A DNA stretch of 64,000 bases from Clavibacter michiganensis (GTDB lineage Bacteria > Actinomycetota > Actinomycetes > Actinomycetales > Microbacteriaceae), in the NCBI RefSeq assembly GCF_016907085.1, contig NZ_JAFBBJ010000001.1, forward strand, positions 1,488,001 to 1,552,000, written 5' to 3'. The notes below the pieces were generated by a model. That model ran no database searches. It saw only the letters and a list, made by a program, of their open reading frames with translations, and was not told the DNA's origin. Below are positions 44,226-64,000 of this stretch, in pieces (the first letter of the stretch is position 1; every line of letters begins with the position of its first letter). Both the position numbers and the translations under genes were made by a program.

Positions 44226-45344
44226 ATGCCCGCCGTACCCCCACCGAGCAGATCCGTATTGCTCAATCCCGGCCCCGTGAACGTGCATCCGGCCGTCCGC
44301 GAGGCCATGTCCTATCCGGACGCCTGCCACCGCGAGGTCGAGGTCGCCGACCTCCTGCGCAACGTCCGCGCCTCCGCCACCCGGCTCGCGGGAGGCGATT
44401 CCCGCTTCACGAGCGTCGTCGTCACGGGATCCGGGACGGCCGCGCTCGAGGCGACGCTGACCAGCGTCGTGCCTCCCGGCAAGCGGGTCCTCGTGCTCGA
44501 CAACGGCAACTACGGCGAGCGGATCGCCAAGGTGCTCGCCGCGCACGGCATCCCCTCCACGCACCTCGAGTTCGGCTGGGGCGAGCGCATCGAGCTCGAC
44601 GCGGTCCGCCACGCCCTCGTCACGGACGAGGACCTGACGCACGTCGCGATGATCCACCACGAGACCAGCACCGGAATGATGAACCCGCTGCACGGGGTGG
44701 GCGAGATCGTGCACGCGCTCGGCCGCTCGCTGATCGTGGACGCGATCTCGAGCCTCGGCGCCGAGGACCTGAGCGTGGTCGACGACCACGTCGACTGGTG
44801 CGTCGGCACCGCGAACAAGTGCGTCGAGGGCCTCCCCGGGGTCAGCTTCGTGGTCGCCCGACGGGCGGCGCTGGACGCGATCGCGGACCACCCGCCCCGC
44901 ACCCTCTACCTCGACCTGCACCGCCACCACCTGGCCCAGGAGGACGACGCACCGCTGTTCACGCCCGCCGTGCAGGTGCTCTACGCGCTCGACGTCGCGC
45001 TCGCGATGGCGCTCGAGGAGGGCGTCGCGGCCCGCGGCGCACGCTACGAGTCGCTCGCCGGGATCCTCCGCGACGGGATGGCCGAGCGCGGCCTCGGGAT
45101 CGCGCTCGAGCCCCGCGACCGGGCCAGGAGCGTGACCAACGTCGCCCTGCCCGACGGCGTCACCTACGAGGAGCTGCACGACGCGTTGAAGCGGCGCGGA
45201 TACACCATCTACGGCGTCCCGCAGAAGGTGGGCGAATACGTCCGCCTCTCCACAATGGGGCAGCTGCGCGAATCCGACCTCACGCGATTCCTGGACGCCT
45301 TCGATGAATCGCTCGTCGAGCTGCGCTCCGTGGTGCCCGCATGA
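44226..45344 (+). CDS. PhnW-like class V aminotransferase
   Basis: A 372-residue PLP enzyme closely patterned on 2-aminoethylphosphonate:pyruvate aminotransferase (PhnW): LLNPGPVNVHPAVREAM, VVTGSGTAALEATL, HHETSTGMMNP, VDAISSLGAEDL, PLP-Lys198 in TANKCVEGLPG and RRGYTIYGVPQKVGEY. PhnW interconverts a phosphonoaldehyde and an aminophosphonate. In a biosynthetic cluster it would aminate an aldehyde, but no phosphonopyruvate decarboxylase is in the window, so the acceptor may be a three-carbon phosphonoaldehyde made by the kinase/reductase pair downstream. ATG at 44226 has TGGAGGA; an ATG at 44221 is in another frame. First gene of the cluster, coupled to the next by ATGA. Confidence 0.85.
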   Translation: MPAVPPPSRSVLLNPGPVNVHPAVREAMSYPDACHREVEVADLLRNVRASATRLAGGDSRFTSVVVTGSGTAALEATLTSVVPPGKRVLVLDNGNYGERIAKVLAAHGIPSTHLEFGWGERIELDAVRHALVTDEDLTHVAMIHHETSTGMMNPLHGVGEIVHALGRSLIVDAISSLGAEDLSVVDDHVDWCVGTANKCVEGLPGVSFVVARRAALDAIADHPPRTLYLDLHRHHLAQEDDAPLFTPAVQVLYALDVALAMALEEGVAARGARYESLAGILRDGMAERGLGIALEPRDRARSVTNVALPDGVTYEELHDALKRRGYTIYGVPQKVGEYVRLSTMGQLRESDLTRFLDAFDESLVELRSVVPA

Positions 45345-47497
45345 AGCGCGGATCGCTCGCGATCGTCGGTGGCGGTCCGAGCAGCACATATGTCCTGGAA
45401 AGGCTGGTGAGCCTCCTGCGCGCCGATCCGGTCGCCGTCGACCTGGAGATCCACGTCTTCGAGAAGACCGGGGAATTCGGTGCGGGCGCCGTGCACAGCG
45501 CGCGGCAGCCGCAGACGAGCTTCCTGAATCGCATCGTCGGCCAGGTGTCGTTCGCGGCGGACGAGACCGTCGTCGGCGCGGGTGATCTCCTCGGCGAATC
45601 GGAACGCCCGACATTGCACGAGTGGTGCCAGCAGGAATACCGGCGCACGGGCGACGAGCGGTTCAACCTGCGCGCGGAGGACTGGCCGAAGCGGTTCATG
45701 CACGGCATGGCGCTCGCCGCGCAGTTCGACCGGTACGTGCAGCACCTCCGGGAGATCCCCGGCGTGCACCTGGAGCTGCACGAGGACGAGGTGGTCGACA
45801 TCGACGACCTCGGGCGACGCCTGGAGCTGCGCTGCGCCTCGGGCGCCCGGATCGCCGCCGACCAGGTGCTCTTCGTGACCGGCCACTCGGTGAACAAGCC
45901 CGAGAAGTACCCGCGACAGGCCGTCTGGGCCGCCGCAGCGGACGCATCCGGCCGCACGTTCGTGCGCTACGCCTACCCGTTGGAGGCCACCCTCACGCCG
46001 GACGCCGTCCCCCCGGGATCCGTCGTCGCCTGCTCGGGCGCCGGCCTCACGGCCATCGACGTCGCGCTGTACCTCTCGGAGGGTCGCGGCGGCACCTTCA
46101 CCCGCCAGGAGGACGGATCGCTCCGGTACCGGCCGAGCGGCGGCGAGCCCGCGCGCATCGCGATGGTGTCGGGAGCCGGTCTGTTCACCTTCGCGCGGCC
46201 CTTCAACGCCAAGCAGGTGGACCTGCCGCGGTACGAGCACCGGGGGCGGTTCCTCTCCGAGACCGCCGTCGACGCCCTCCGCGAGTCGGCGGGGATCCCC
46301 GTGCGCGTCGGGACCGGCACCGTCCGGCAGCTCGACTTCCAGGCCCACCTGTTCCCGCTGGTCACGCTCGAGATGGCGTACCTCCATCACGCGACGCTCT
46401 ACGGCGCAACCGTCGCCGCGCACCTCCGCTCGGTGGTGGAGCCGGTGTTCCGGCAGTTCCTCGCGGCCCCCGGGCCCGAGACGGCCGAGGCCCTCGGGCG
46501 CACGATCGACGAGGCGGCCGCATCCGTCGCGGCGGCCCTCCAGGCGTCGCTCGACGGGGATCCCGCCGCGGCCGACGACGTCCCCTGGGACGTGGACGAG
46601 GCGGCCGAGCGGTTCCTGCGGGTCGTCTACGGCGTCGGCGGGAGCCCGGAGGACCCCCGCGACGACACCGAGGCGAACCGGGCCGCCTACCTGGCCGGCG
46701 CGCCGAGCCCGTGGCGGCACCCCATCCACCCGGTCGAGCACCGCTTCTCCTGGGAGGACGCCATCCGGCCCGTCCCCGAGGAGGCGGCCACCGACCCCGC
46801 CGGGTACACGGCCGCGGTGATCGACTTCATGGAACGGGACCACCTGGCCGCCGCCCAGGGCAACCTGCTCAACCCGTCGAAGGCCGCGGCCGACGGCGTC
46901 TGGCGGGACCTGCGCCCGGTGCTCCAGCACGCCGTCGACTTCGGGGGCCTGACGGCGGAGTCGCACCGCGACTTCGTCGAGTCCGTCATGCGCCATCACA
47001 ACCGCCTGGCGAACGGCGCCGCGCTGGAGGTGATGGAGAAGATGCTCGCCCTCATCCACGCCGGCGTCATCGACATGAGCACGGGACCGGGCGGGCGCAT
47101 CCTCGGCGACGACGACGGCTTCACGGTCGTCGGCCCGCGCACCGGCGCCCGCTCCCCCGCCGACGTGCTGGTGGACGCGCGCGTCCACCCGTTCGACGCG
47201 GAGGCCGACGTGTCCCCGCTCTACGCGTCCCTCCTCGATCGCGGCCTCGTCCGCATGTGGGAGAACCCCTCCCCCGACGGGACGCCCTACCGCCCGGGTG
47301 GCCTCGACCTCTCGCCGGACTTCCATCCGCTCACCGCCTCAGGCGAGGCCGACCGTCGGCTGACGTTCCTCGGGCCGCCCAGCGAGGGCGTCATGTTCTT
47401 CCAGCTGGGAGCCCTGCGCCCCCAGCAGAACCACCACCTGATGCAGGACATCCTCACCTGGATCGAGCACCTCGAGCACGAACTCCTCTCCGCGTAA
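45341..47497 (+). CDS. Large FAD/NAD(P)-binding oxidoreductase
   Basis: A 718-residue flavoprotein-like enzyme. The N-terminal Rossmann motif is LAIVGGGPSSTYVLERLVSLL, with HVFEKTGEFGAGAVHS as the acidic end. A second glycine-rich segment, VVACSGAGLTAIDVALYLSEG, probably binds a second nucleotide. It resembles the FAD-NAD(P)-binding family (PF13454 type), which includes hydroxylase-like proteins. The C-terminal 250 residues are mainly helical. The reaction is unknown. Inside a phosphonate cluster it could hydroxylate or oxidise the amino acid or phosphonate part. Its ATG overlaps the preceding stop; 20 bp separate it from pepM. Confidence 0.75.
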   Translation: MKRGSLAIVGGGPSSTYVLERLVSLLRADPVAVDLEIHVFEKTGEFGAGAVHSARQPQTSFLNRIVGQVSFAADETVVGAGDLLGESERPTLHEWCQQEYRRTGDERFNLRAEDWPKRFMHGMALAAQFDRYVQHLREIPGVHLELHEDEVVDIDDLGRRLELRCASGARIAADQVLFVTGHSVNKPEKYPRQAVWAAAADASGRTFVRYAYPLEATLTPDAVPPGSVVACSGAGLTAIDVALYLSEGRGGTFTRQEDGSLRYRPSGGEPARIAMVSGAGLFTFARPFNAKQVDLPRYEHRGRFLSETAVDALRESAGIPVRVGTGTVRQLDFQAHLFPLVTLEMAYLHHATLYGATVAAHLRSVVEPVFRQFLAAPGPETAEALGRTIDEAAASVAAALQASLDGDPAAADDVPWDVDEAAERFLRVVYGVGGSPEDPRDDTEANRAAYLAGAPSPWRHPIHPVEHRFSWEDAIRPVPEEAATDPAGYTAAVIDFMERDHLAAAQGNLLNPSKAAADGVWRDLRPVLQHAVDFGGLTAESHRDFVESVMRHHNRLANGAALEVMEKMLALIHAGVIDMSTGPGGRILGDDDGFTVVGPRTGARSPADVLVDARVHPFDAEADVSPLYASLLDRGLVRMWENPSPDGTPYRPGGLDLSPDFHPLTASGEADRRLTFLGPPSEGVMFFQLGALRPQQNHHLMQDILTWIEHLEHELLSA

Positions 47498-47517
47498 GAA
47501 GAAAGAGACAGACACCC

Positions 47518-48381
47518 ATGAAGAGCAACTCACATCCCAGCTTCCGGCGGCTCATGGCCGAGAAGCCCATCGTCCGCATCGCGGGCGTGCACGACGGCCT
47601 CGGCGGCAAGCTCGCCGAGAGCGCCGGCTTCGACGCCGTCTGGTCGTCGAGCTTCGAGGTCTCCGCATCCCGCGCGCTGCCGGACGCGAGCCTCCTGTCC
47701 ATGGCGGAGTACCTGGAGGCGGCCCAGAACATCCAGTCGGCCATCGGGATCCCCGTCGTCGCGGACTGCGACACCGGCTACGGGAACAACCTCAACGTCG
47801 CGCACATGGTGCACCGCTACGAGCGCGCCGGGATCACGGCGGTCGCGATCGAGGACAAGCACCACCCGAAGATGAACTCGTTCGCCGACGCGCACCACGC
47901 GCTGCTCACGGTGCAGGAGTTCTCCGACAAGATCGACACCGCCAAGAGCGCCCAGGCGAGCGACGACTTCTACGTCATCGCCCGCACCGAGGCGATGATC
48001 GCGGGGCTCGGCGTCGACGAGGCGCTCGAGCGGTGCGCCGCCTACGTCGCCGCCGGCGCCGACGCCGTGCTCGCCCACTCCAAGTCGAGCGAGCGCGGCG
48101 AGATCGAGAGCTTCCTCCGCCAGTGGGACGGCGCCGCGCCCGTGGTGATCGTGCCGACGACGTACCCGGACTGGCAGGTCGACGCCATCAGCGAGGCCGG
48201 CGCGTCCGCCGTCATCTACGCCAACCAGGGCCTCCGGTCGTCCGTCCGCGCGATGGAGGGCACGTTCGCGACCATCCTCCGGGAGGGATCCAGCCTCTCG
48301 CTCGAGAGCGACATCGCCTCCGTGCAGCAGGTCTTCGAGATCCAGGACCTCAGCCAGTGGCAGGAGCTGACCCGGTCCTGA
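47518..48381 (+). CDS. pepM: Phosphoenolpyruvate phosphomutase
   Basis: A 287-residue TIM-barrel enzyme of the isocitrate lyase/PEP mutase superfamily. It carries the signature EDK-x5-NS (E112-D-K114-HHPKM-N120-S121), which separates PEP mutase from methylisocitrate lyase and other relatives that have KKCGH instead. Metal-site residues are in VADCDTGYGN (Asp83, Asp85). It converts phosphoenolpyruvate to phosphonopyruvate and forms the C-P bond that starts nearly all phosphonate natural products. The equilibrium strongly favours PEP, so a pulling step is needed; the dehydrogenase 58 bp downstream is the best candidate. Ribosome site is a weak purine run. Proximity to prpC invites misannotation as prpB. 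Confidence 0.95.
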   Translation: MKSNSHPSFRRLMAEKPIVRIAGVHDGLGGKLAESAGFDAVWSSSFEVSASRALPDASLLSMAEYLEAAQNIQSAIGIPVVADCDTGYGNNLNVAHMVHRYERAGITAVAIEDKHHPKMNSFADAHHALLTVQEFSDKIDTAKSAQASDDFYVIARTEAMIAGLGVDEALERCAAYVAAGADAVLAHSKSSERGEIESFLRQWDGAAPVVIVPTTYPDWQVDAISEAGASAVIYANQGLRSSVRAMEGTFATILREGSSLSLESDIASVQQVFEIQDLSQWQELTRS

Positions 48382-48439
48382 CGAGGCGCGTCCCGGAGGA
48401 CGCCCGACGCCCACGACGACGAACGAGATGGAGCACCAC

Positions 48440-49426
48440 ATGACCGACACGGACACGCGCGCGGGCGGCACGCAGCGGGAGCTCACGATCCTGCTGCTGG
48501 ATCCCGTCCACCCGGTCGTGCGCACGAGCGCCCCGGCCGGCAGCCGGTTCGTGGAGCGCTACGGCGCGAGCGGACCGGCCGAGGCCGCGGATCTCGCGGA
48601 GGCGGACGTCATCGTCCTCCGCAGCGGCGCCGCGCTGACCGCCGACATGATGCGCGCAGCGCCTGGGCTCCGGGCGATCATCCGGGCCGGGGCCGGCCTC
48701 GACAACATCGACCTCGCCGCCGCGACCGCGCAGGGCGTTCCGGTCTGCTCCGTGCCCGGCGGATCCGCGAACGCCGTGGCCGAGCTGGCCGTCGGCCTGG
48801 CGATCGGCACCATGCGCCACGTGGCCCTCGCCGACCGCCAGCTCCGCGCCGGCAGCTGGCGCAAGCACGAGCTGATGGGGGCCGAGATCGCCGGCTCGAC
48901 CGTCGGCGTGCTCGGGTTCGGGGCCATCGGGTCCCGGATCGGCTCCATCGCGTCGGCCCTGGGCGCACGGGTGATCGCCGCCGTCGGCTCCCCGAGCGAG
49001 GCGCGGCGCGCGGAGCTCGCCGCGCAGGGCGTCGAGCTGGTCACCCGCGACGAGATGGCGGCACGCGCCGGCCTGCTCTTCCTGGCGCTGCCCCTGGACG
49101 CGGACACGCGGGGCGTCGTCGACGCGGCGTTCCTCGCGCGGATGCCCGCCGGGGCGTACCTCGTGAACGTGTCGCGCGGCGGCATCGTCGACGAACGGGC
49201 GCTCGCGGACGCGCTCGCGTCCGGTCGCCTCGCCGGAGCCGCCACCGACGTGCACGAGGTCGAGGGCCGCGGGACCAGCCCGCTCGCCGCGCTCGACGAC
49301 GTGGTGCTCACCCCGCACATCGGCGGGATGACCGCCGAGGCGCAGGAGCGGGTGGGACGGGTCGTGTCGTCGATCCTCGCCCAGGTCGCGCGCGGCGACG
49401 CGACGCTGGAGGGACGGGTCGCATGA
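48440..49426 (+). CDS. D-2-hydroxyacid dehydrogenase, candidate phosphonopyruvate reductase
   Basis: A 328-residue NAD-dependent dehydrogenase of the D-3-phosphoglycerate/D-lactate dehydrogenase family. The Rossmann motif is VGVLGFGAIGSRIGSIASALGARV, the substrate/NAD Arg lies in LVNVSRGGIVDERAL and the catalytic His in LTPHIGGMT. It lacks the ACT regulatory domain of long SerA. ATG 48440 is chosen over 48428 because GATGGAG lies 6 nt before it. Placed after pepM, it most simply reduces phosphonopyruvate to phosphonolactate. A phosphonopyruvate reductase of this role is described for valinophos (VlpB); whether this enzyme is homologous needs a search. Alternative: SerA-like supply of phosphoserine precursor for diaminopropionate. 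Confidence 0.85.
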   Translation: MTDTDTRAGGTQRELTILLLDPVHPVVRTSAPAGSRFVERYGASGPAEAADLAEADVIVLRSGAALTADMMRAAPGLRAIIRAGAGLDNIDLAAATAQGVPVCSVPGGSANAVAELAVGLAIGTMRHVALADRQLRAGSWRKHELMGAEIAGSTVGVLGFGAIGSRIGSIASALGARVIAAVGSPSEARRAELAAQGVELVTRDEMAARAGLLFLALPLDADTRGVVDAAFLARMPAGAYLVNVSRGGIVDERALADALASGRLAGAATDVHEVEGRGTSPLAALDDVVLTPHIGGMTAEAQERVGRVVSSILAQVARGDATLEGRVA

Positions 49427-50457
49427 GCGCCGCCATCGCCAGCGCCGTGCTCCGAGCGGAGCGCGACGTGCAGGTCATGACGGCGCCACCGGAGGCGCTC
49501 GGCGCCGACGACGTGCGCGTGCGGGTCATCAGCTCCGGTATCTGCGGATCCGACCTCGCCGCGTACCGGGGGCACCACCCCTACAAGCGCCCGCCCGCCG
49601 TGCTGGGGCACGAGCTCGCCGGGACCGTCACGGAGGTGGGCCCCGGGGTGCGCGACGTGCGACCGGGCGACCGCGTCGCCACCTTCGCCTACGCCCCCTG
49701 CCTCCGCTGCGCGGCCTGCCGGCGCGGGGATCCGCACCTGTGCTCCGATCGCGAGAACCTCAGCGCCGGCCGGCTCGGCGGCACGCTCGCCGAGGAGGTG
49801 GTCCTCCGCGCGGCCATGGTGTGCGCGGTGCCGCCGCGCATGCCGAGCGATGCCGTGGTGCTCATCGAGCCGCTGGCCATCTCCGCGCACGCGGCGGCGC
49901 TGGCGGCGCTCGACGGGCGATCCGTCTGCGTCATCGGCTGCGGGACCATCGGGCTCGGCTGCGTCATCGCCGCCCGGGCGGCGGGTGCCGCGTCCATCCG
50001 CGGGATCGACCGCGGCGACGGGAAGCGCGACCGGTTCGTCGCCACCGGGGGCGACGCGTTCGTCGACGTCCGGGACGCCGCCGTCCGTGACCTGTCGGAC
50101 GAGGACGTCGTCGCGCACGACGTGGTGGTCGTCGCGACCGCGTACCCGGGCGTGCTCGACGACGCCGTGCGGCTGGCGCGGCCGGGAGGCACCGTGATCG
50201 TCGTCAGCTACTTCCCCGACGCGCAGGTGCTCCATGCCAACGAGGCCGTGTCGAAGGAGATTGCCATCCGCGGATCCGCGCTCAGCACCCCGCGCGACGT
50301 CGCCGCCGTCATCGCGTGGTGGGAGGCCGGCCTCGTCGACCCCGCCACCCTCATCAGCCACCGGTTCGCCCTCGCGGCGGCACCGGAGGCGTTCGCGCTC
50401 ATGGACCGCGGGGACGGCGACCTGGGCAAGATCATCATCGAGGGGACCGCATCGTGA
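49423..50457 (+). CDS. Zinc-type medium-chain alcohol dehydrogenase
   Basis: A 344-residue MDR enzyme. Catalytic zinc ligands are Cys in SSGICGSDLAAY and His-Glu in LGHELAGTVTEVG. The structural zinc Cys cluster is CLRCAACRRGDPHLC, complete with four Cys. The cofactor-binding motif is CVIGCGTIGLGCVIAARAAG. It would oxidise or reduce an alcohol/aldehyde intermediate. Its ATG overlaps the preceding stop and its own stop overlaps the ArgC-like start (GTGA), so it is translated with both. Which of the two alcohol dehydrogenases acts on the phosphonoaldehyde cannot be told from sequence. Confidence 0.87.
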   Translation: MSAAIASAVLRAERDVQVMTAPPEALGADDVRVRVISSGICGSDLAAYRGHHPYKRPPAVLGHELAGTVTEVGPGVRDVRPGDRVATFAYAPCLRCAACRRGDPHLCSDRENLSAGRLGGTLAEEVVLRAAMVCAVPPRMPSDAVVLIEPLAISAHAAALAALDGRSVCVIGCGTIGLGCVIAARAAGAASIRGIDRGDGKRDRFVATGGDAFVDVRDAAVRDLSDEDVVAHDVVVVATAYPGVLDDAVRLARPGGTVIVVSYFPDAQVLHANEAVSKEIAIRGSALSTPRDVAAVIAWWEAGLVDPATLISHRFALAAAPEAFALMDRGDGDLGKIIIEGTAS

Positions 50458-51530: not shown

Positions 51531-51532
51531 GC

Positions 51533-53798: not shown

Positions 53799-53887
53799 CG
53801 GACCGACGCGCGCGCCGCGTCCGCCCCGGCCGCGCCACGGACCACGGGGACCCGCGGCCCGACACCACGACGGAGAGGCCGACCACC

Positions 53888-55944: not shown

Positions 55945-56026
55945 GGCCAGCGGACGCGCGCACCGCGCGCCACGAGAGCACGTACCCCGCGTCGGATCGA
56001 CGCGACAGAACACGGAGGAACACCAC

Positions 56027-56200
56027 GTGACCACTGCCAGCCAGCCGATGACGCCGGGTGCGGAGACGCGCCCCGGCACCGCCCGACCAGAGGATGCCCG
56101 CGCGATCCGCGCGCGCACGACCGGGGCCGGACCCGCGGACCGCACCGCCCGGCGGCGACGATGCGCGCCGGTGGCCGGACCCGAGCGGATGCCGTCGTGA
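56027..56200 (+). CDS. Small ORF coupled to the SbnA-like gene
   Basis: A candidate 57-residue protein, VTTASQPMTPGAETRPG and then Arg-rich RTARRRRCAPVAGPERMPS. It has a strong ribosome site, GGAGGA (56014-56019), seven bases before its GTG, and its TGA overlaps the SbnA GTG in a GTGA. The SbnA-like gene itself has a weak ribosome site, so this ORF may serve mainly to deliver ribosomes to it, or encode a real small protein. No homologue is known to me. The sequence is low-complexity, so coding is not certain. Confidence 0.4.
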   Translation: MTTASQPMTPGAETRPGTARPEDARAIRARTTGAGPADRTARRRRCAPVAGPERMPS

Positions 56201-57180: not shown

Positions 57181-58205
57181 CCGCGCCGCAGGATCCTCGC
57201 CCCCTCTCCGTCGTGCCGGCCGCGACCGTGCGACGCGTCCTCGACGGACACGAGCTCGACACCATCCGCCTCGTCGAGGAGGCCTACCGCCGGCACGCGT
57301 CCGGGACCACCGTCAACCCGCGGTCGCTGTTCCTGCGGTTCCCGGATCGACCGGACGCGCGGATCATCGCGCTGCCCGCGTCGCTCGGGCCGGGGCAGCC
57401 CGTCGGCATCAAGTGGATCTCGAGCTTCCCGTCGAACCACGCGCGCGGCCTGCCGCGGGCGTCCGCCGTGCTGCTGCTCAACGATCCGGCGACCGGGTTC
57501 CCCGTGGCGTGCATGGAGGCCTCCATCGTGAGCGCCACGAGGACGGCCGCCTCGGCGGCCTCCGCCGCGCGCGCGCTGTTCCGGCACCGCCCGACGCCCA
57601 CGACGGTCGGGATCGTGGGCACCGGGCTCATCGCCTCGTACGTGCTCAGGTACCTGCGCGCGGCGGGGCTCGGCGGGCAGCGGATCGTCGTCCACGACGC
57701 CCTCCCGGAGCGGGCGGCGGCGTTCGCGGCCGAGCACTCGGACGGGACGGCCGCCGAGGCCGCCTCGGCCGCCGAGGTCGTCCGGCGCAGCGACCTGGTC
57801 GTCTTCGCCACCACCGCCGCGAGCCCGCACGTCGAGGACACGGCGGCGTTCGCGCACCACCCCGTCGTGCTGCACGTGTCGCTCCGCGACCTCGGCATCG
57901 AGGTCATCCGCGACGCGGTCAACATCGTCGACGACGTCGAGCACTGCCTCACCGCCGACACCTCGGTGCATCTCGTCGAGCAGCGGACCGGGGACCGCAG
58001 CCACGTCCACGGCACCATCGCCGAGGTGCTGGACGGACGGCTCGTCCCGCCGGCGGACGCGACGGTCGTCGTCTCGCCGTTCGGGCTGGGCGTGCTCGAC
58101 ATCGCCGTCGGCCAGCACGTCCTCGACCGCGGCGGGTCGAGCATCCACCACGTCGAGGGCTTCTTCTCGACGGAGCACGAGAGCGCGGGGAAGGGAACGA
58201 GATGA
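57177..58205 (+). CDS. sbnB: SbnB-like dehydrogenase (diaminopropionate pathway)
   Basis: A 342-residue NAD enzyme of the ornithine cyclodeaminase/mu-crystallin family. NAD motif VGIVGTGLIASYVLRYL; substrate-side PRASAVLLLNDPATGFPVACMEASIVSATRTAA; HVSLRDLGIEV and SPFGLGVLDIAVGQ follow. SbnB oxidatively splits the SbnA product into L-2,3-diaminopropionate, 2-oxoglutarate and ammonia. The order sbnA-sbnB with ATGA overlap, directly before an adenylation domain, matches use of diaminopropionate as a peptide building block, as in dapdiamide and viomycin-type pathways. Confidence 0.88.
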   Translation: MTAPQDPRPLSVVPAATVRRVLDGHELDTIRLVEEAYRRHASGTTVNPRSLFLRFPDRPDARIIALPASLGPGQPVGIKWISSFPSNHARGLPRASAVLLLNDPATGFPVACMEASIVSATRTAASAASAARALFRHRPTPTTVGIVGTGLIASYVLRYLRAAGLGGQRIVVHDALPERAAAFAAEHSDGTAAEAASAAEVVRRSDLVVFATTAASPHVEDTAAFAHHPVVLHVSLRDLGIEVIRDAVNIVDDVEHCLTADTSVHLVEQRTGDRSHVHGTIAEVLDGRLVPPADATVVVSPFGLGVLDIAVGQHVLDRGGSSIHHVEGFFSTEHESAGKGTR

Positions 58206-59821
58206 GCGGACACGACGACGCCGGGAGGGCCGGCGAGCGGTCCCTGTCCGAGCTGACGATCGCCCCGGGCGCGCTCGAGCGGATCCGGGCGAGCGCGCTC
58301 CACGGGCCGCACGCGGACGTCGACGTCGAGCGCCTGCTCGACCGGGTGCGGCGCATCGCGGGCGAGGACCCGGATCGCCCCGCCGTGCGGGACGGGGCGC
58401 GGACGGTCAGCTACGCGCAGCTCGTGGACTGGGCGGATCACCTCATCTCCCAGCTGGGCGCGCTCCAGGTGCCCCGGTCGAGCGTCGTCGCCTACTTCGG
58501 GCCGCGCAGCGTCGAGCAGATCGTCGCCCTGCTGGCCGTGGACGCGATCTCCGCCGTCTACCTCCCGATCGAGACGTCCTGGCCGGACGCCCGCGCCCGT
58601 TCCGTCCTGGAGCTGGCGCGCGCGCACACGGTCCTCCGTCACCCCGACGCGATGCAGCCCCCCGCGGATGCCGTCCCCATCGGGCGACGAGACGACCCGA
58701 TCCCGGACCCTCCCGGTCAGGCGCTGCGTCACCCCTCCTCCACCGACGCGAGCTACGTCATCTTCACCTCGGGGACGACGGGTGCGCCGAAGGGCGCCAC
58801 GGTCGAGCGCCGGGGCATGCTGAACCACCTGTGGTCGAAGATCGCCGAGCTCCGGATCCGGCGCGGCGACGTCGTCGCGTACACGGCGCCCATCGGCTTC
58901 GACATCTCCATCTGGCAGATGCTCGCGCCGCTGCTCGCCGGGGCGTCCGTGGAGATCGTCGCGGACCGCGACCTCGCGTTCCCGCGGCGGATCATCGCGC
59001 GGTTGACGGAGGGCGAGGTCACCGTCGCGGAGCTCGTGCCCTCGGTGATCCGGTGGCTCGTGGCCGGGCGGGATCCGCGGGCGGCCGGTCCGCTCCCCCT
59101 CCGCTGCCTCCTCTCCACCGGCGAGGAGCTCTCCCCGTCGCTCGCGGCGGCCGTCCTGGAGCGCTTCGAGCGCACGCTCCTCGTCAACGCGTTCGGTCCC
59201 ACGGAGTGCTCGGACGACGTGACGCACGCGCGCATCACGCCCGCGGACCTCGCCCGGGCGCGGCTCCCCATCGGCGTGCCCGTCCAGAACACGACCCTCC
59301 ACGTGCTGCGGTCCACGGACGCGGGATGGGAGGCCGTCGACGACGGCGAGCAGGGGGAGCTGTTCGTCGGCGGCCTCGGCGTGGGGCGCGGCTACGTCGG
59401 CAACCCGGCCGCGACGCTGTCGGCGTTCTTCCGGGACACCCTCGATCCCCGCTCGCCCACGGGCCGGCTCTACCGCACGGGCGATCACGTCGTCCGGCAC
59501 GACGGTCGGCTCGAGTACCGCGGGCGCCGGGACCGCCAGGTGAAGCTCGCCGGCGTCCGCATGGAGCTGGACGAGATCCAGCTGGCGATCGAGGCCCACC
59601 CCCTCGTGGCCGAGGCGGCCGTCGCGGTGGCCGAGGAGGGCGCACGCGCGGTCGTCACCGCCCACGTCGTGTTCACCGGCCGCACCTGGGACTTCGGCCC
59701 CCTCAAGGAGCACCTCGCCAGCACCCTCCCCCCGGCGATGGTCCCGACCCGCTGGACGGCGTGGGAACAGCTGCCGCACACCCCGAACGGAAAGGTCGAC
59801 CACCATGAGCTCGTCAGATGA
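58202..59821 (+). CDS. Stand-alone adenylation domain, predicted for a diamino acid
   Basis: A 539-residue NRPS-type adenylation protein without condensation or carrier domains. Core motifs: A3 FTSGTTGAPKGA, A4 GFDISIWQ, A5 NAFGPTE, A7 YRTGDH, A8 RRDRQVKLAGVRMELDEI and A10 Lys in NGKVDH. Aligned by eye to GrsA numbering, the pocket code reads D-I-W-E-L-T-A-D-D-K. Three acidic positions besides Asp235 fit a side-chain amino group, and I recall near-identical codes for 2,4-diaminobutyrate domains. The SbnAB genes just upstream suggest diaminopropionate. It would load the carrier protein at 60980. An N-terminal 60-residue extension is present. Confidence 0.88.
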   Translation: MSGHDDAGRAGERSLSELTIAPGALERIRASALHGPHADVDVERLLDRVRRIAGEDPDRPAVRDGARTVSYAQLVDWADHLISQLGALQVPRSSVVAYFGPRSVEQIVALLAVDAISAVYLPIETSWPDARARSVLELARAHTVLRHPDAMQPPADAVPIGRRDDPIPDPPGQALRHPSSTDASYVIFTSGTTGAPKGATVERRGMLNHLWSKIAELRIRRGDVVAYTAPIGFDISIWQMLAPLLAGASVEIVADRDLAFPRRIIARLTEGEVTVAELVPSVIRWLVAGRDPRAAGPLPLRCLLSTGEELSPSLAAAVLERFERTLLVNAFGPTECSDDVTHARITPADLARARLPIGVPVQNTTLHVLRSTDAGWEAVDDGEQGELFVGGLGVGRGYVGNPAATLSAFFRDTLDPRSPTGRLYRTGDHVVRHDGRLEYRGRRDRQVKLAGVRMELDEIQLAIEAHPLVAEAAVAVAEEGARAVVTAHVVFTGRTWDFGPLKEHLASTLPPAMVPTRWTAWEQLPHTPNGKVDHHELVR

Positions 59822-60968
59822 GAGGACCGCGAGGAGCGGACCGGATCTCGAAGCACGACTGCTGCTCCTCCTGTCGAGGATCCGCCTCGAGCCGGAGCAC
59901 GTCGCGAGGGCCCGTGCCCTCATCGACGAGGGCACGGTGCGATGGGGGGTGTTCCTGGAGCGGGCCGCGCGGCACAAGGTCCTCCCCCTCGTCGGTCGGC
60001 ACATCGCGGAGCACGGGCTGAGCCGCGGCGACACGGGTGACGGGACGCAGGGCATCCCGTTCGCCTGGGTCTACCCCACGGTCCTCGTCGGCAACCGCGA
60101 CAGGAACCACGCCCTCGCGGACGAGGCCCTCCTGGTGTCGCGCGCGTTCGAGCGGCACGGCCTCGCGCACGCCATGCGGAAGGGGCTCGTCGTGGCCCAG
60201 GCGCTCTACGGCGACATCGGCGCCCGGCGGATCAACGACATCGACTTCCTCATCGCGCGCGACGACGCTCCCGCCGCCGACGCCGCCCTGCAGGACCTCG
60301 GGTACGTCCAGGGGAAGATCACCCGGGAGGGCGACCGCATCGAGCGGTTCTCCCGCGCCACCCAGATCTTCTGGCGGACGAACCTCACCAACCAGCTGCC
60401 GTACGTGAAGCTGGGCGCACGACCGGACCTCCCCGTGGTCAACGTCGACCTGTGCCACGCCCTCTTCCAGAAGGACGTCGCCGACGGCGACACCACGCCC
60501 GAGGTGCTCGCCCGCGCGGGGAGGACGCCGCTCGGCGGCGGATCCATGCCGCGGCTCGAACCCGTGGACGAGCTCCTCGACCTGTGCGCGCATCTGCACA
60601 AGGAGGCCACGGGCCTGCTCTTCGTCGAACAGGGCGTGGATCTGCAGATCAGCAAGTTCCTCGACGTCTCCGCATCCGCCTCCGCGCTCGGGGCCGACGC
60701 CTGGGACACGGTGCTCGGCCGCGTCGCCTCGAGCGGCCAGCGCCGGGTCATCCACTACTCCCTCGCCTTCGCGGAGGCCCTCTACCCCGGGAGCGTCCCG
60801 CCGCGCGTGCTCGACGCGCTCCGGCCCGCCGACCTGTCCCACCTCGACGAGTACGGCGCCGCCGACGGGAGCCCCACGCGGTGGGACATCCCCTTCCCCG
60901 ACCGGCTCTTCGCGGAGGCGCCGGCCGGCCCCTCCGCCGCCGCCACCTCGACCGTTCCCCACGCATGA
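59805..60968 (+). CDS. Nucleotidyltransferase family protein (NTP_transf_5 type), copy 2
   Basis: A 387-residue paralogue of the protein at 53888-55048. The core reads HAMRKGLVVAQALYGDIGARRINDIDFLIAR, with DIDFL carrying the Asp pair, and the helical part ELLDLCAHLHKEATGLLF, ISKFLDVSASASAL. It has the GGAAAGG ribosome site inside the adenylation gene and overlaps it by 17 bp. Both copies keep the catalytic Asp pair, so both may be active on different acceptors or as a heterodimer. The family occurs as tailoring enzymes in lasso peptide and other peptide clusters. Confidence 0.78.
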   Translation: MSSSDERTARSGPDLEARLLLLLSRIRLEPEHVARARALIDEGTVRWGVFLERAARHKVLPLVGRHIAEHGLSRGDTGDGTQGIPFAWVYPTVLVGNRDRNHALADEALLVSRAFERHGLAHAMRKGLVVAQALYGDIGARRINDIDFLIARDDAPAADAALQDLGYVQGKITREGDRIERFSRATQIFWRTNLTNQLPYVKLGARPDLPVVNVDLCHALFQKDVADGDTTPEVLARAGRTPLGGGSMPRLEPVDELLDLCAHLHKEATGLLFVEQGVDLQISKFLDVSASASALGADAWDTVLGRVASSGQRRVIHYSLAFAEALYPGSVPPRVLDALRPADLSHLDEYGAADGSPTRWDIPFPDRLFAEAPAGPSAAATSTVPHA

Positions 60969-60979
60969 CAGGAGATGAA

Positions 60980-61264
60980 GTGACCGGACACCCGGACGAC
61001 GTCGAACGCTCCGCCCGGCTGCTCGCCGTGCTCACCACCGTGCTGGAGCTGACCCCGGAGGGGCCGCCCCTCACCTGGGGATCCGACCTGGGCGGGCTCG
61101 GCCTCGACTCGCTCACCACGGTGGAGACGGTGCTGCAGCTCGAGGAGGCCTTCGACGTCGAGCTCCCGGACGAGGCGCTCGCGCCCGCCACCTTCGCGAC
61201 CCCGCTGACCCTGTGGGGCGCCGTGGAGCGGGCCATCGCCGACGCGGACGGAGCACTCTCGTGA
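60980..61264 (+). CDS. Free-standing acyl/peptidyl carrier protein
   Basis: A 94-residue carrier protein. The phosphopantetheine attachment site is Ser44 in GGLGLDSLTTVETVLQLEEAFDVELPDEAL, a textbook carrier motif. AGGAGAT five bases upstream favours GTG 60980; ATG 60965, which overlaps the previous stop, is an alternative. It should receive the amino acid activated by the adenylation protein at 58202. No thioesterase or condensation domain is in the window, so release may use the ATP-grasp enzymes or a gene further on. Its stop overlaps the next start (GTGA). Confidence 0.9.
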   Translation: MTGHPDDVERSARLLAVLTTVLELTPEGPPLTWGSDLGGLGLDSLTTVETVLQLEEAFDVELPDEALAPATFATPLTLWGAVERAIADADGALS

Positions 61265-61896
61265 TCGTCGCCATCGTCGGGCCCGACGGCGCCGGGAAGT
61301 CGACGGCGACCCGGCAGGTGACGGCGCACCTGCGCGGACGCGGCGACACCGCGACCCTGGTGGACCGGTGGGACATCGTGGGCGACCCCCGCTATCGCGC
61401 GGCCCGGTTCATGCAGGCATCGGTCGCGGAGACCCGCCAGTGCGTCGCGGAGATGCCCGGCGCCTCCCGGTTCCTGTTCCTCATGTGGTCCATCGGCTAC
61501 GCGCTGGAGGCCCGCCCGCGGGTCCCCGGCGCGGTCACGGTGCTCGACGGGTACTGGATGAAGCACGCCGCGAGCGAGGCCGCCTACGGGGTGGACCGGG
61601 AGTGGATCGAGTCGGTCGTCGCCGGGCTCCCCCCGACGGACGAGGTCGTGTACCTCCGCGTGACGCCCGACGTCGCCTGGGCGCGCAAGGAGGACGGCGA
61701 CGTCGTCCCCTACGAGTGCGGCATGGATCCCTCCTGCTCCCGCGCGTCGTTCGTGGCGCACCAGACGCGGATCCTCGAGGTCATGGACGGGTGGGCGGAG
61801 CGCGACGGCTGGACGGTCGTGGACGCCTCGGGCGACCGGGACGCCGCGCGCCGCGCGATCGTCGCGCGCCTCGACCGGCCGGGTGGCCGCGCATGA
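61261..61896 (+). CDS. Thymidylate-kinase-like P-loop kinase
   Basis: A 211-residue P-loop protein. Walker A is AIVGPDGAGKSTATRQV, then TLVDRWDIVGDPRYRA; VTVLDGYWMKHAA fills the DR(Y/F) position of dTMP kinases and VVYLRVTPDVAWARKE is a further family hallmark. Housekeeping tmk is unlikely to lie in such a cluster, so it probably phosphorylates a pathway intermediate, perhaps a phosphonate or a nucleotide attached by the NTP_transf_5 enzymes. Cys residues in YECGMDPSCSRASF are notable. GTG start overlaps the carrier protein stop. Confidence 0.8.
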   Translation: MIVAIVGPDGAGKSTATRQVTAHLRGRGDTATLVDRWDIVGDPRYRAARFMQASVAETRQCVAEMPGASRFLFLMWSIGYALEARPRVPGAVTVLDGYWMKHAASEAAYGVDREWIESVVAGLPPTDEVVYLRVTPDVAWARKEDGDVVPYECGMDPSCSRASFVAHQTRILEVMDGWAERDGWTVVDASGDRDAARRAIVARLDRPGGRA

Positions 61897-61997
61897 CGCC
61901 GGCCGGACCCGCCTCCGTCGTCCCCCGTCGCCACCCGCTGGCGGCCGCCCTCCCCCGTCCCCGTCCCCGTCCCCGTCCCCGAGAAGGAAGCATCTGA
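61893..61997 (+). CDS. Tiny ORF spanning the gap before the ATP-grasp gene
   Basis: A 34-residue reading frame, MTPAGPASVVPRRHPL and a Pro-Arg repeat ending EGSI. Its ATG overlaps the kinase stop (ATGA) and its TGA shares a base with the ATP-grasp ATG (TGATG), so it fills an otherwise 100-bp gap. It lacks a clear ribosome site of its own. It may be a coupling ORF rather than a functional peptide. Confidence 0.25.
   Translation: MTPAGPASVVPRRHPLAAALPRPRPRPRPREGSI
61953..61981 (+). repeat. CCCCGT hexanucleotide tandem repeat
   Basis: Four perfect CCCCGT units followed by CCCCG, just before the GAAGGAAG ribosome site of the ATP-grasp gene. Confidence 0.9.
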
Positions 61998-63229
61998 TGC
62001 AGACACGGAAGAGGCTGCTGGTCGTCGGCAGCGGCGCCGCCGAGGCCTATCGGCTCTATTCGCTCGAGTCCATCGCGCGCGCCTTCGACGTCGTGCTCCT
62101 CGACGACGCCCCACCGACCTGGCAGTCGCCCCACGTGGTCGACGCGGTCGTCACGCCCTTCGACGAGGCCCTGGACGCGCTCGATCCGCTGCTCGCGGAG
62201 CAGCCGGTCGACGGCGTGATGACGTGGGACGAGCGGCGCCTCGACCTCGTGGCGCGGATCGCGACCCGGCACGGCCTGCGCGGTCCGGCCCCCGAGGTCG
62301 TCGAGGCGTGCCGCGACAAGTGGCGGACCCGGAGCGTCCTCGCCGCGGCCGGGGTGCCGTCGGCGCGGTCGATCCTCACCCGCACGGTCGACGAGGCGAT
62401 CGACGCCGCCCGGGAGATCGGCTACCCCGTGGTCGTGAAGCCGCGCTCCCTCGCGGGCAGCATCGGCGTGCAGCGGGTGGACCACCCGGACGGGATGCGG
62501 TCCGCGTGGGAGCTCGCCGACGGCGCGGTGATGGCCACGGTCATCGCGCGTCCCGGTGTCCTCGTCGAGGAGTACCTGACGGGCGACGAGTTCAGCCTCG
62601 AGTGCGTCACGGCGGACGGCGCCACCGACGTCGTGGCGATCACGCGGAAGCAGGTCGGCAGCCCGCCCTACTTCGAGGAGCTGGGGCACGTCGTGGACGC
62701 GGCGGACCGCGCGAGCGGCTGGGCCGATGAGGCGGCGGACGTGGCGCGCCGCGCGCTCGACGCCCTCGGCGTGCGTGTCGGCGTCAGCCACGTGGAGGTG
62801 CGGATCGACGGGAGCGGGCCCCGGATCATCGAGGTGAACGGCCGGCTCGGCGGGGACCTGATCCCGCACCTGGTGCACCTCGCCACCGGCGTGGACCTGT
62901 CGCTCGCCGCCGCCTGCGTCGCCACGGGGGTCGAGGTCCCCCGGGCTCCCGTGATCTCCCGGGCGGCGGGGATCCACTTCTTCACGCCACCGGAGGCCGG
63001 GACCTTCGTCGAGCACCGCGTGGGCTCCTGGGCGGACGAGCCCTGGGTCGAGCGCTGCGTGTGGGTCCGCGCCCACGGCGACCGGATGGGGCTGCCGCCC
63101 GACGTCTTCATGGCGCGCCTCGGCTTCGCGGTGCTCACGGGGGACGACGCCGAGACCGTGCGGGAGCGCGCCCGCATCGCCGCCGCGGGCACCCGCATCA
63201 CCATGGGCTCCGCGGCGGTCGCCCGATGA
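61997..63229 (+). CDS. ATP-grasp ligase 1
   Basis: A 410-residue ATP-grasp enzyme. The N-terminal pre-ATP domain is LLVVGSGAAEAYRLYSLESIARAFDVVLLD. The ATP-binding core shows CRDKWRTRSVLAAAGVPSA, YPVVVKPRSLAGSIGV and VLVEEYLTGDEFSLE. The metal-binding end is VSHVEVRIDGSGPRIIEVNGRLGGDLIPHL. This build is typical of the carboxylate-amine ligases used for non-ribosomal dipeptides (bacilysin BacD, dapdiamide DdaC/DdaF type). It should form an amide between an amino acid carboxylate and an amine, plausibly joining diaminopropionate or an aminophosphonate. GAAGGAAG supports ATG 61997. Stop overlaps the next start (ATGA). Confidence 0.87.
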   Translation: MQTRKRLLVVGSGAAEAYRLYSLESIARAFDVVLLDDAPPTWQSPHVVDAVVTPFDEALDALDPLLAEQPVDGVMTWDERRLDLVARIATRHGLRGPAPEVVEACRDKWRTRSVLAAAGVPSARSILTRTVDEAIDAAREIGYPVVVKPRSLAGSIGVQRVDHPDGMRSAWELADGAVMATVIARPGVLVEEYLTGDEFSLECVTADGATDVVAITRKQVGSPPYFEELGHVVDAADRASGWADEAADVARRALDALGVRVGVSHVEVRIDGSGPRIIEVNGRLGGDLIPHLVHLATGVDLSLAAACVATGVEVPRAPVISRAAGIHFFTPPEAGTFVEHRVGSWADEPWVERCVWVRAHGDRMGLPPDVFMARLGFAVLTGDDAETVRERARIAAAGTRITMGSAAVAR

Positions 63230-64000
63230 GCGGCCCGATCGTCGTCCTCTCGACCCTCAGCACCTCCCTGGAGCGGGAGCTCGCGGCCCGCGGGCGAGCG
63301 GTCATCGTGCTGGTCCCCCGCGCCGTCGTGCACGAGCGTGCGCGGCCGGACTGCGCCGTCCGGGGCGTCGACCGCTGGGACGACTACACGGAGCTCGCCC
63401 GCCTCGCCGCCGATCTCGAGCGGCAGGGTGTCGTGGCCGTCGCGACGACCGACGAGCGCTGCCTGCGCGCGGCCGCCTTCCTGCGGGCGGTCCTCGGCCT
63501 CCCCGGGCTCGGCTTCGACGACGCGGTGGCGTTCACGGACAAGGCCGTCATGAAGGCGCGGCTGCGCGCCCACGGCGTCGCGGTGGCGGAGGGGGAGGTC
63601 GTCCACGCGGTCGACGACCTCCCGGACGTCGCCGCGCGTCTCGGCTGGCCGCTCCTCGTCAAGCCGCGCTCCGGCTTCAGCGCCATCAGCACGCACGTGA
63701 TCCGCGATCCCGGGCATCTCGCGCAGCTGCAGGCGGACGGGGTCCTGCGCCGGGCGCCGTCGATCGGGACCCGGCACCCCGCGCTGTCCGCGACGGACGG
63801 GCTCGGGCCGCTCGGCTCCTCCCCGCGGGGCTTCCTCACGGAGGCCTGCGTCGACGTCGACGTCGAGTTCCAGTGCGAGCTCCTGCGACGCGGCGGCGAG
63901 GAGGTGTACTGCCTGCCCTTCCGCTACTCCGCGCCGCTCCTGGAGGCCGGCGACAGGGTCGGTGCCGCCCACATCGGCTCGTCGTCCGAGGACGCCCGCC
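63226..64000 (+). CDS. ATP-grasp ligase 2, truncated by the window end
   Basis: Only the first 258 codons are visible and the frame is open at the end. It starts MSGPIVVLSTLSTSLERELAARG. The central motifs FTDKAVMKARLRAHGV, WPLLVKPRSGFSAIST and GFLTEACVDVDVEFQCELL match the ATP-grasp fold, although the extra residues between the Lys strand and the FLTEAC strand (about 40, with LRRAPSIGTRHPALSATDGLG) are unusual. A second ligase suggests at least two amide bonds in the product, or alternative acceptors. Coupled to ligase 1 by ATGA. Confidence 0.8.
   Translation, partial: MSGPIVVLSTLSTSLERELAARGRAVIVLVPRAVVHERARPDCAVRGVDRWDDYTELARLAADLERQGVVAVATTDERCLRAAAFLRAVLGLPGLGFDDAVAFTDKAVMKARLRAHGVAVAEGEVVHAVDDLPDVAARLGWPLLVKPRSGFSAISTHVIRDPGHLAQLQADGVLRRAPSIGTRHPALSATDGLGPLGSSPRGFLTEACVDVDVEFQCELLRRGGEEVYCLPFRYSAPLLEAGDRVGAAHIGSSSEDAR

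What the first reader, a model, noticed from the sequence alone, without database searches (positions are those of the whole stretch)
44226..64000. Probable undescribed phosphonopeptide biosynthetic cluster
About 20 genes in one direction, nearly all overlapping or within 100 bp, begin with a PhnW-like aminotransferase and PEP mutase. They continue with redox/kinase genes, an SbnA-SbnB diaminopropionate pair, a stand-alone adenylation domain, a carrier protein, two nucleotidyltransferases, a FomA-like kinase and two ATP-grasp ligases. PEP mutase marks C-P bond formation (established). The combination with a diaminopropionate loading module and ATP-grasp ligases predicts a phosphonate-containing peptide (inference). 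I do not recognise this gene set as a known pathway. It continues beyond the window.
Basis: partly seen in the sequence, partly recalled or inferred. Interest (0 to 1): 0.95.

Follow-up and report, generated by a model that had tools for sequence, protein, structure and literature searches.

The report
Predicted nitro-phosphonate peptide gene cluster
A bacterial chromosome closely related to Clavibacter carries 20 intact, tightly packed genes in one direction, among them one with the signature of the enzyme that makes carbon-phosphorus bonds; together they are predicted to build a small phosphonate that likely carries an oxidised nitrogen and is likely joined to the amino acid diaminopropionate, a molecule that may block the sugar-burning enzyme enolase.

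Summary
In detail: 20 intact co-directional genes (44226 to 67104; three end beyond the window) include a PEP mutase with the EDK-x5-NS signature. Of 24 loci holding it and the PhnW-like aminotransferase, 11 carry that set, 13 carry phosphonopyruvate decarboxylase, none both or neither. I infer that the pair aminates and N-oxidises a C2 carbonyl: phosphonoacetaldehyde there, its hydroxymethyl homologue here. The diaminopropionate module recurs, complete or lacking one gene, in seven other clusters and is absent from the nearest Clavibacter relative. The boldest predicted core is (3-hydroxy-2-nitropropyl)phosphonate, recalled as a synthetic nanomolar enolase inhibitor. A second enolase lies beside the Umezawaea cluster, but enolase copy number elsewhere does not track the cluster. 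No product is known to me; nothing was tested at the bench. New variant of a known kind.

The parts
44226..45344 (+). PhnW-like class V aminotransferase (AT), 372 aa
   Evidence: TIGR03301 PhnW-AepZ 342.5 bits, under its cut-off 360.8; nearest solved structure 2-AEP:pyruvate aminotransferase 1m32, E 4.3e-56
45341..47497 (+). CreE/FzmM/PcxL-type flavin N-oxygenase (NMO), 718 aa
   Evidence: Only PDB sequence match 8cp2 (aspartate N-hydroxylase), 134 bits; N62, R266, R409, R412, R577 kept, aspartate-binding R13, R276, N413, R416 not; 9 of the 120 listed homologues are fused to PEP mutase
47554..48381 (+). Phosphoenolpyruvate mutase (PepM), 275 aa
   Evidence: PF13714 180 bits; EDKHHPKMNS; best solved match 5unc PEP phosphomutase E 8e-87; TIGR02320 279.8, under its cut-off 319.55
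48428..49426 (+). 2-hydroxyacid dehydrogenase (HADH), predicted phosphonopyruvate reductase
   Evidence: PF02826/PF00389; nearest solved: phosphoglycerate dehydrogenases
49423..50457 (+). Zn-dependent medium-chain dehydrogenase, predicted to oxidise the C2 alcohol
   Evidence: PF08240/PF00107; best NCBIfam relatives include threonine 3- and idonate 5-dehydrogenases; over threshold in 11 of 11 HADH-route loci with AT+NMO and in the transketolase-bearing G642, not in G494, where only a 72-bit match about 13 kb away was seen
50454..51530 (+). ArgC-like acyl-phosphate reductase
   Evidence: TIGR01850 303.4 bits, over cut-off 233.6
51542..52711 (+). PGK-like kinase, predicted phosphonolactate kinase
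   Evidence: PF00162 136 bits; PGK structures, best E 9e-27; relatives at E <= 1e-40 in 4 of 392 Streptomyces genomes, each in a cluster with pepM
52701..53798 (+). Fe-dependent alcohol dehydrogenase, predicted to reduce phosphonolactaldehyde
   Evidence: PF00465/PF25137; of the two dehydrogenases the only one over threshold in G494
53795..55048 (+). Nucleotidyltransferase-fold protein NTP5a
   Evidence: PF14907 120 bits
55045..55944 (+). FomA-like phosphonate kinase, predicted self-protection
   Evidence: Best solved match FomA 3d40 E 2.4e-39; NF000338 143 bits, under its cut-off 550
56161..57180 (+). SbnA, predicted diaminopropionate synthesis
   Evidence: TIGR03945 369.4 over cut-off 349.95
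57177..58205 (+). SbnB, predicted diaminopropionate synthesis
   Evidence: TIGR03944 364.3 over cut-off 326.9
58202..59821 (+). Stand-alone adenylation domain
   Evidence: PF00501 207 bits; pocket read by recalled motif anchors DIWELTADD, pattern DIWE[LIV]TADD in 8 of 8 clusters compared
59805..60968 (+). Nucleotidyltransferase-fold protein NTP5b
   Evidence: PF14907 125 bits; predicted fold (mean pLDDT 78.9): one PDB match at E <= 0.001 (MenAT1), then ANT(2'')-Ia, FKRP, LnuA among the weaker ones
60965..61264 (+). Carrier protein with LGLDSL site
   Evidence: PF00550 35.7 bits; sequence
61261..61896 (+). P-loop kinase (thymidylate-kinase-like, TMK)
   Evidence: PF02223 19.5 bits, under cut-off 27; 82% identical gene in the VKM Ac-2873 cluster
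61997..63229 (+). ATP-grasp ligase with LAL_C2 end
   Evidence: PF13535 76 bits, PF18603 34 bits
63226..64000 (+). Second LAL-type ligase; runs out of the window, ends at window position 64509. Beyond it: MFS exporter 64502-65857 and stand-alone condensation domain (HHLIADG) 65854-67104
   Evidence: PF18603 51 bits; MFS_1 132 bits; PF00668 31.4 bits over cut-off 30.6

Best explanation
The cluster is predicted to make a three-carbon aminophosphonate whose nitrogen is likely oxidised (oxime or nitro) and which is then likely coupled to diaminopropionate and exported. Shown by sequence: gene content, intact frames, family membership, co-occurrence. Every catalytic step is inferred: PEP to phosphonopyruvate (PepM); reduction to phosphonolactate (2-hydroxyacid dehydrogenase), which would pull the unfavourable mutase reaction; activation to an acyl phosphate (PGK-like kinase), reduction to phosphonolactaldehyde (ArgC-like) and to 2,3-dihydroxypropylphosphonate (Fe-ADH); oxidation of the C2 alcohol to 3-hydroxy-2-oxopropylphosphonate (Zn-ADH); transamination at C2 by the PhnW-like enzyme to 2-amino-3-hydroxypropylphosphonate, that is 2-aminoethylphosphonate with a hydroxymethyl group; repeated N-oxidation by the PcxL/CreE-type flavoenzyme. 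SbnA and SbnB are predicted to make diaminopropionate, the adenylation domain to load it on the carrier, and the condensation domain and two LAL-type ligases to attach it, probably as an uptake tail; the FomA-like and TMK-like kinases and the nucleotidyltransferase-fold proteins would mask the compound for self-protection; the MFS protein would export it.
For: Families. N-oxygenase identity; 9 of 120 listed homologues (247 found) fused to PEP mutase; PcxL and CreE as relatives in print (PMC10404684, two sections read). Two ways of supplying the carbonyl: among 33 loci tabulated at hand-set score thresholds, 24 hold AT and NMO; 11 of them have HADH+ZnADH+ArgC+PGK+FeADH and no decarboxylase, 13 have phosphonopyruvate decarboxylase and none of those five over threshold, 0 both, 0 neither (decarboxylases of G421, G738 and G003b named by Pfam/NCBIfam). 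The own genome has no decarboxylase over the family cut-off; its best match is 46 of 312.5 bits. Zn-ADH is in 11 of 11 of the former and in the transketolase-bearing G642. Dap module in 8 of 33 loci with one pocket pattern. VKM Ac-2873 has the core with FomA, TMK and NTP5a but no Dap module.
Against: No chemistry was tested. Which carbonyl the aminotransferase uses and how far the N-oxygenase goes are inferred; PcxL is reported as oxime-forming. Four NMO residues that first looked specific for this route (F207, H501, M550, F686) are shared by the decarboxylase-linked G003b, so they do not mark the substrate. NMO, AT and PepM trees do not group the HADH-route loci. A PNPOx-like gene found in 9 of 11 such loci was not found here or in VKM Ac-2873. 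TIGR03301 and TIGR02320 scores are under their cut-offs. Of the 24 loci, PepM was over threshold in 22; G663 has a partial match at the locus edge and G1382 none. The valinophos and phosphonothrixin papers were not held, so those assignments are recalled.
Confidence: 0.5

Rival explanations
1. The aminotransferase acts one carbon further out, on phosphonolactaldehyde, giving 3-amino-2-hydroxypropylphosphonate; a single N-hydroxylation and acylation by the ligases would then give a fosmidomycin/FR-33289-like hydroxamate aimed at DXR (both compounds recalled).
For: All enzymes up to the aldehyde are present; N-oxygenase present; ligases could acylate the nitrogen.
Against: Leaves Fe-ADH and Zn-ADH without a role although both occur in 11 of 11 such loci; PhnW and PcxL chemistry (2-aminoethylphosphonate) is at the carbon beta to phosphorus.
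Confidence: 0.2
2. The aminotransferase acts on phosphonopyruvate to give phosphonoalanine, an aspartate isostere, which the N-oxygenase oxidises, with decarboxylation, to 2-nitroethylphosphonate; the dihydroxypropylphosphonate branch is a separate half of the product.
For: The N-oxygenase is related to aspartate N-hydroxylase, whose nitro product decarboxylates.
Against: Aspartate-binding residues R13, R276, N413, R416 are not kept; 13 of 24 AT+NMO loci have phosphonopyruvate decarboxylase and so would make phosphonoacetaldehyde.
Confidence: 0.1
3. It is a plain valinophos- or phosphonothrixin-type cluster with accessory genes.
For: Shares HADH, PGK, ArgC and Fe-ADH with G494 and G642, and Zn-ADH with G642.
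Against: No transketolase half or other TPP enzyme as in G642; AT and NMO are not found in G494 and G642 but present here and in 10 other HADH-route loci.
Confidence: 0.08
4. The cluster is silent or decayed and makes nothing.
For: Sporadic: none of the nine other same-genus genomes in the family sample has the N-oxygenase.
Against: 20 of 20 frames intact; PepM 98% and the other core proteins 88-94% identical to VKM Ac-2873.
Confidence: 0.1

Closest known systems
Valinophos pathway (Streptomyces durhamensis; Zhang et al. 2022, paper not held, recalled; mentioned in PMC12723261 and PMC12871164, passages read)
   Same: 2-hydroxyacid dehydrogenase as coupling enzyme to phosphonolactate, kinase and ArgC-like reductase to dihydroxypropylphosphonate (recalled), ATP-grasp ligation to an amino acid
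   Different: Here also Zn-ADH, aminotransferase, N-oxygenase, diaminopropionate module, adenylation, carrier and condensation proteins, FomA-like and TMK-like kinases. Vlp protein sequences were not compared
Phosphonothrixin ftx pathway (Bown et al. 2023, paper not held, recalled; cited in PMC12723261, passages read)
   Same: Same upper route plus oxidation of dihydroxypropylphosphonate to 3-hydroxy-2-oxopropylphosphonate (recalled); G642 has such a layout with Zn-ADH
   Different: No transketolase half or other TPP enzyme here; ketone predicted to be aminated instead
Phosphonocystoximate/hydroxynitrilaphos pathways (PcxL; two sections of PMC10404684 and passages of PMC12723261 read)
   Same: PcxL-family N-oxygenase; 13 decarboxylase-linked loci have the same AT and NMO families
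   Different: Those run, as recalled, through phosphonopyruvate decarboxylase and 2-aminoethylphosphonate; no decarboxylase over cut-off in this genome. PcxL's own sequence was not compared
SF-2312 (natural phosphonate enolase inhibitor; PMC13302981, passages read)
   Same: Possible target
   Different: Different scaffold (recalled); no gene comparison made

Membership tests
Phosphoenolpyruvate mutase | EDK-x5-NS mutase signature (motif recalled) | tested here: met
   EDKHHPKMNS aligned to the mutase 5unc (EDKRFPKVNS)
Phosphoenolpyruvate mutase | NCBIfam TIGR02320 cut-off | tested here: not met
   279.8 vs 319.55 bits, though the best-scoring family
CreE/FzmM/PcxL N-oxygenases | Homology to the solved aspartate N-hydroxylase and kept Asn62/Arg266/Arg409/Arg412/Arg577 | tested here: met
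Aspartate N-hydroxylase (CreE proper) | Aspartate-binding Arg13, Arg276, Asn413, Arg416 | tested here: not met
   Ser, Glu, Pro, Gln at the aligned places; Arg577, also in that binding set, is kept, and an arginine two places from 276 leaves that position open
PcxL oxime-forming N-oxygenase | Sequence orthology and oxime product | not tested
   PcxL sequence not available to me; paper not held
PhnW 2-AEP aminotransferase | TIGR03301 cut-off | tested here: not met
   342.5 vs 360.8 bits
SbnA/SbnB diaminopropionate synthesis | TIGR03945 and TIGR03944 cut-offs | tested here: met
   369.4 vs 349.95; 364.3 vs 326.9
Valinophos-type upper pathway | HADH + PGK-like + ArgC-like + alcohol dehydrogenase beside pepM, no decarboxylase (definition recalled) | tested here: met
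   orthology to Vlp proteins themselves not tested
Phosphonothrixin pathway | Heterodimeric transketolase plus acetolactate-synthase-like enzyme (definition recalled) | tested here: not met
   No match to a transketolase half of G642 in the 29.5 kb tested; no TPP-enzyme domain among its genes
FomA fosfomycin kinase | NF000338 cut-off | tested here: not met
   143 vs 550 bits; a relative

The most novel reading that the evidence does not exclude
The core product is (3-hydroxy-2-nitropropyl)phosphonate, a compound chemists made decades ago as a reaction-intermediate mimic of enolase (recalled), here made by bacteria and delivered as a diaminopropionate conjugate; enolase duplicates beside N-oxygenase genes would be the producers' resistance, and one AT/N-oxygenase pair fed by either of two carbonyl routes defines a family of N-oxidised phosphonates across actinobacteria.
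Probability: 0.25. Interest if true: 0.88.

Novelty: new variant of a known kind. Interest (0 to 1): 0.66.

Why it matters
It would add a third fate of the dihydroxypropylphosphonate route (ester in valinophos, C-C bond in phosphonothrixin, N-oxidation here), and the either/or pattern of carbonyl supply suggests how C2 and C3 phosphonate head groups are swapped under one tailoring pair. If the nitro reading is right, a classic laboratory enolase inhibitor is a natural product with a built-in uptake tail. The prediction is concrete: one small molecule, three single-enzyme tests and one target.

Tried and rejected
Substrate marks in the N-oxygenase: four columns separated HADH-route from decarboxylase-route loci in a set of 15, but the decarboxylase-linked G003b, left out of that set, has the same residues, and of 329 other lineage sets one scored higher and one the same on the looser count; rejected as evidence. 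Gene trees do not resolve the HADH-route loci as one group.

Enolase copy number: a second enolase is in the own genome and in three of 17 other genus genomes (G301, G1185, G1190; G113 has only a short 38-bit fragment); G301 has no N-oxygenase, G1185 and G1190 were not tested for it, and VKM Ac-2873 has one enolase. In the family of Umezawaea, 2 of 12 genomes without an N-oxygenase match have two, against 3 of 7 HADH-route genomes (G004, G1249, G1463 yes; G1259, G1458, G1213, G1323 no). S. acidiscabies has two, G661 one. So copy number does not support the target; only linkage does, in Umezawaea and in two N-oxygenase-enolase loci (G1425, G1463b) that show no PepM, AT or HADH set over threshold. 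The seven enolases aligned keep the catalytic motifs by eye (positions recalled), so no resistance change is seen.

Not pursued: promoters, tandem repeats and the empty site; Rfam gave no match over gathering in the window. Literature: phosphonolactaldehyde (15), phosphonate+diaminopropionate+PEP mutase (16), enolase+nitropropyl+phosphonate (47) and phosphonate+enolase inhibitor+gene cluster (50) gave 0 papers; Clavibacter+phosphonate+gene cluster (30) gave 10, of which I read passages of one, on Rathayibacter (32); valinophos (19), phosphonolactate (20), CreE/FzmM (46), phosphonocystoxim- (58) and phosphonothrixin (72) gave 6, 2, 1, 6 and 9, of which I read two sections of one and passages or abstracts of four others; a term search in the phosphonothrixin target paper found nothing on its biosynthesis. 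MIBiG and antiSMASH were not available. The A-domain pocket was read from recalled motif anchors; its likeness to diaminobutyrate codes is recalled.
Full report
Where it lies. The window is part of a complete 3.32 Mb single-contig genome. The nearest named relative found is Clavibacter sp. VKM Ac-2873, with 98% identity in PepM and 95% in the flanking citrate synthase. The cluster starts at 44226, divergent from citrate synthase, and ends at 67104, about 3.1 kb beyond the window, where MBL-fold and TetR genes run the other way. All 20 genes are intact and tightly packed.

The upper pathway. PepM has the mutase signature. Next to it are a 2-hydroxyacid dehydrogenase, a Zn-dependent dehydrogenase, an ArgC-like reductase (over the TIGR01850 cut-off), a PGK-like kinase and an Fe-dependent alcohol dehydrogenase. 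From memory, this is the set of valinophos biosynthesis (phosphonopyruvate, phosphonolactate, acyl phosphate, phosphonolactaldehyde, 2,3-dihydroxypropylphosphonate), and the phosphonothrixin pathway adds oxidation to 3-hydroxy-2-oxopropylphosphonate. The two papers were not held; passages of others confirm only that a 2-hydroxyacid dehydrogenase gives phosphonolactate (PMC12871164) and that VlpF joins valine to dihydroxypropylphosphonate (PMC12723261). Two loci from the Streptomyces sample agree with this reading: G494 has PepM, HADH, ArgC, PGK, Fe-ADH and an LAL-type ligase but no Zn-ADH over threshold (a 72-bit match lies about 13 kb away); G642 has Zn-ADH together with transketolase halves and a TPP enzyme, the phosphonothrixin layout. 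So Fe-ADH is the likely aldehyde reductase and Zn-ADH the likely C2 oxidase. Both are inferences.

The missed enzyme. The 718-residue protein at 45341-47497 has one sequence match among solved structures, the aspartate N-hydroxylase 8cp2. Residues at the flavin and part of the arginine cluster are kept (N62, R266, R409, R412, R577); of those holding aspartate, R13, R276, N413 and R416 are not. The paper on that enzyme groups it with PcxL, an oxime-forming N-oxygenase whose product is 2-hydroxyiminoethylphosphonate (PMC10404684, two sections read). Of 247 homologues, 120 were listed and 9 of these are fused to a PEP mutase domain, which ties the family to phosphonates independently of this cluster.

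Comparative test. The N-oxygenase was sought in 392 Streptomyces genomes (17 with a match), 366 genomes of the family of Umezawaea (10), 396 of the phylum (1, the own genome) and 398 of the own family at a looser threshold (6, of which 5 are weak partial matches). I tabulated 33 loci with tblastn at score thresholds set by hand, in stretches of about 11 to 57 kb: the window, 31 fetched loci and one S. niveiscabiei pair of contigs; one match, G1251, was not fetched. The loci came from searches for the N-oxygenase, PepM or PGK, so the presence of these is not independent evidence. Of the 33, 24 hold both aminotransferase and N-oxygenase. Eleven of these carry HADH, Zn-ADH, ArgC, PGK and Fe-ADH and no phosphonopyruvate decarboxylase (window, VKM Ac-2873, S. 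acidiscabies, Umezawaea, G661, G1259, G1458, G1249, G1323, G1463a, G1213). Thirteen carry the decarboxylase, whole or split, and none of those five over threshold (G528 has one weak dehydrogenase match, 83 bits). None has both, none neither. PepM is over threshold in 22 of the 24 (G663 has a partial one at the edge; G1382 none). Of the other nine loci, six hold the N-oxygenase without the aminotransferase (G702, G501, G498, G691, G1425, G1463b), and three are G642, G494 and S. niveiscabiei. The own genome has no decarboxylase over the family cut-off. The simplest reading is that the pair works on P-CH2-C(=O)-R, with R = H from the decarboxylase or CH2OH from the longer route.

The diaminopropionate module. 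SbnA and SbnB exceed their cut-offs. The adenylation domain pocket, read from motif anchors that I recall, is DIWELTADD, and the pattern DIWE[LIV]TADD is common to all eight clusters compared: window, G661, G1259, G1458 on the C3 route and G421, G696, G528, G514 on the decarboxylase route; SbnA was not found in G528 and SbnB not in G1458. VKM Ac-2873 has the core, NTP5a, TMK and FomA, and then the TetR flank: the module is separable from the core. Composition does not mark the block as foreign (74.2% G+C against 74.0% for window bases 1-44000).

Self-protection. FomA-like and TMK-like kinases and PF14907 proteins accompany the core here and in VKM Ac-2873, S. acidiscabies, G661, G1259 and G1458; Umezawaea, G1249 and G1323 show none of the three over threshold, G1463a and G1213 only the two kinases. 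The predicted fold of NTP5b (mean pLDDT 78.9) has one PDB match at E <= 0.001, MenAT1, followed by ANT(2'')-Ia, FKRP and LnuA: a nucleotidyl- or phosphoryl-transfer role, not resolved further. The four decarboxylase-route clusters with the module also carry FomB (576 bits against NF000361 for the one scanned).

The enolase idea. Oxidising 2-amino-3-hydroxypropylphosphonate to the nitro level gives (3-hydroxy-2-nitropropyl)phosphonate, which I recall as a synthetic nanomolar enolase inhibitor. I then looked for enolases. In Umezawaea a complete second enolase lies beside the cluster, next to a PNPOx-like gene that 9 of 11 C3-route loci share. Two further loci (G1425, G1463b) have an enolase 84-86% identical to it about 3 kb from a diverged N-oxygenase, without PepM over threshold. 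Against this: 10 of 11 C3-route loci, the window's among them, have no enolase nearby, second-copy counts do not track the cluster, and VKM Ac-2873 has one enolase only. I give the enolase reading 0.25. A natural phosphonate enolase inhibitor, SF-2312, is on record (PMC13302981, passages).

Verdict. Real, intact, and a new variant of known phosphonate pathways: known head-group route, known kind of N-oxygenase, known diaminopropionate supply, in a combination I did not find described (searches; MIBiG not available). The product and every catalytic step remain predictions.

Noticed in passing
L130/L131 (G1425) and L132/L133 (G1463b): A diverged N-oxygenase (43-46% identical to the window's) lies about 3 kb from an enolase 84-86% identical to the Umezawaea cluster enolase; neighbours look by eye NDK-like, amidase-like and phosphatase-like (no family scan); no PEP mutase over threshold. 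Perhaps another N-oxygenated enolase inhibitor without PepM.
   Followed up: partly
L071 (S. acidiscabies, second N-oxygenase locus): PepM, phosphonopyruvate decarboxylase, AT and N-oxygenase beside a B12 radical SAM P-methyltransferase (NF038361, 1173 bits): possibly an N-oxygenated methylphosphinate.
   Followed up: no
P0045, P0046, P0049, P0060, P0066, P0072, P0078, P0081, P0086: Natural fusions of PEP mutase and this N-oxygenase, two of them named as from Solirubrobacterales.
   Followed up: partly
G000:C1:2362289-2363095 (L088, L096): A second, complete enolase (46% identical to the main one), sporadic in the genus (4 of 18 genomes; three second-type copies in G1190).
   Followed up: partly
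L045 3580-4221, L038 116-781 and seven more loci: A PNPOx/PhzG-like flavoprotein over threshold in 9 of 11 C3-route loci and in 0 of 13 decarboxylase-route loci; not found in the two Clavibacter clusters; role unknown.
   Followed up: partly
window coordinates 76940-77137 and 78736-79650 (beyond the window, L004): A 65-aa frame repeats the C-terminal end of the methylisocitrate-lyase-like gene nearby: a partial gene duplication.
   Followed up: no
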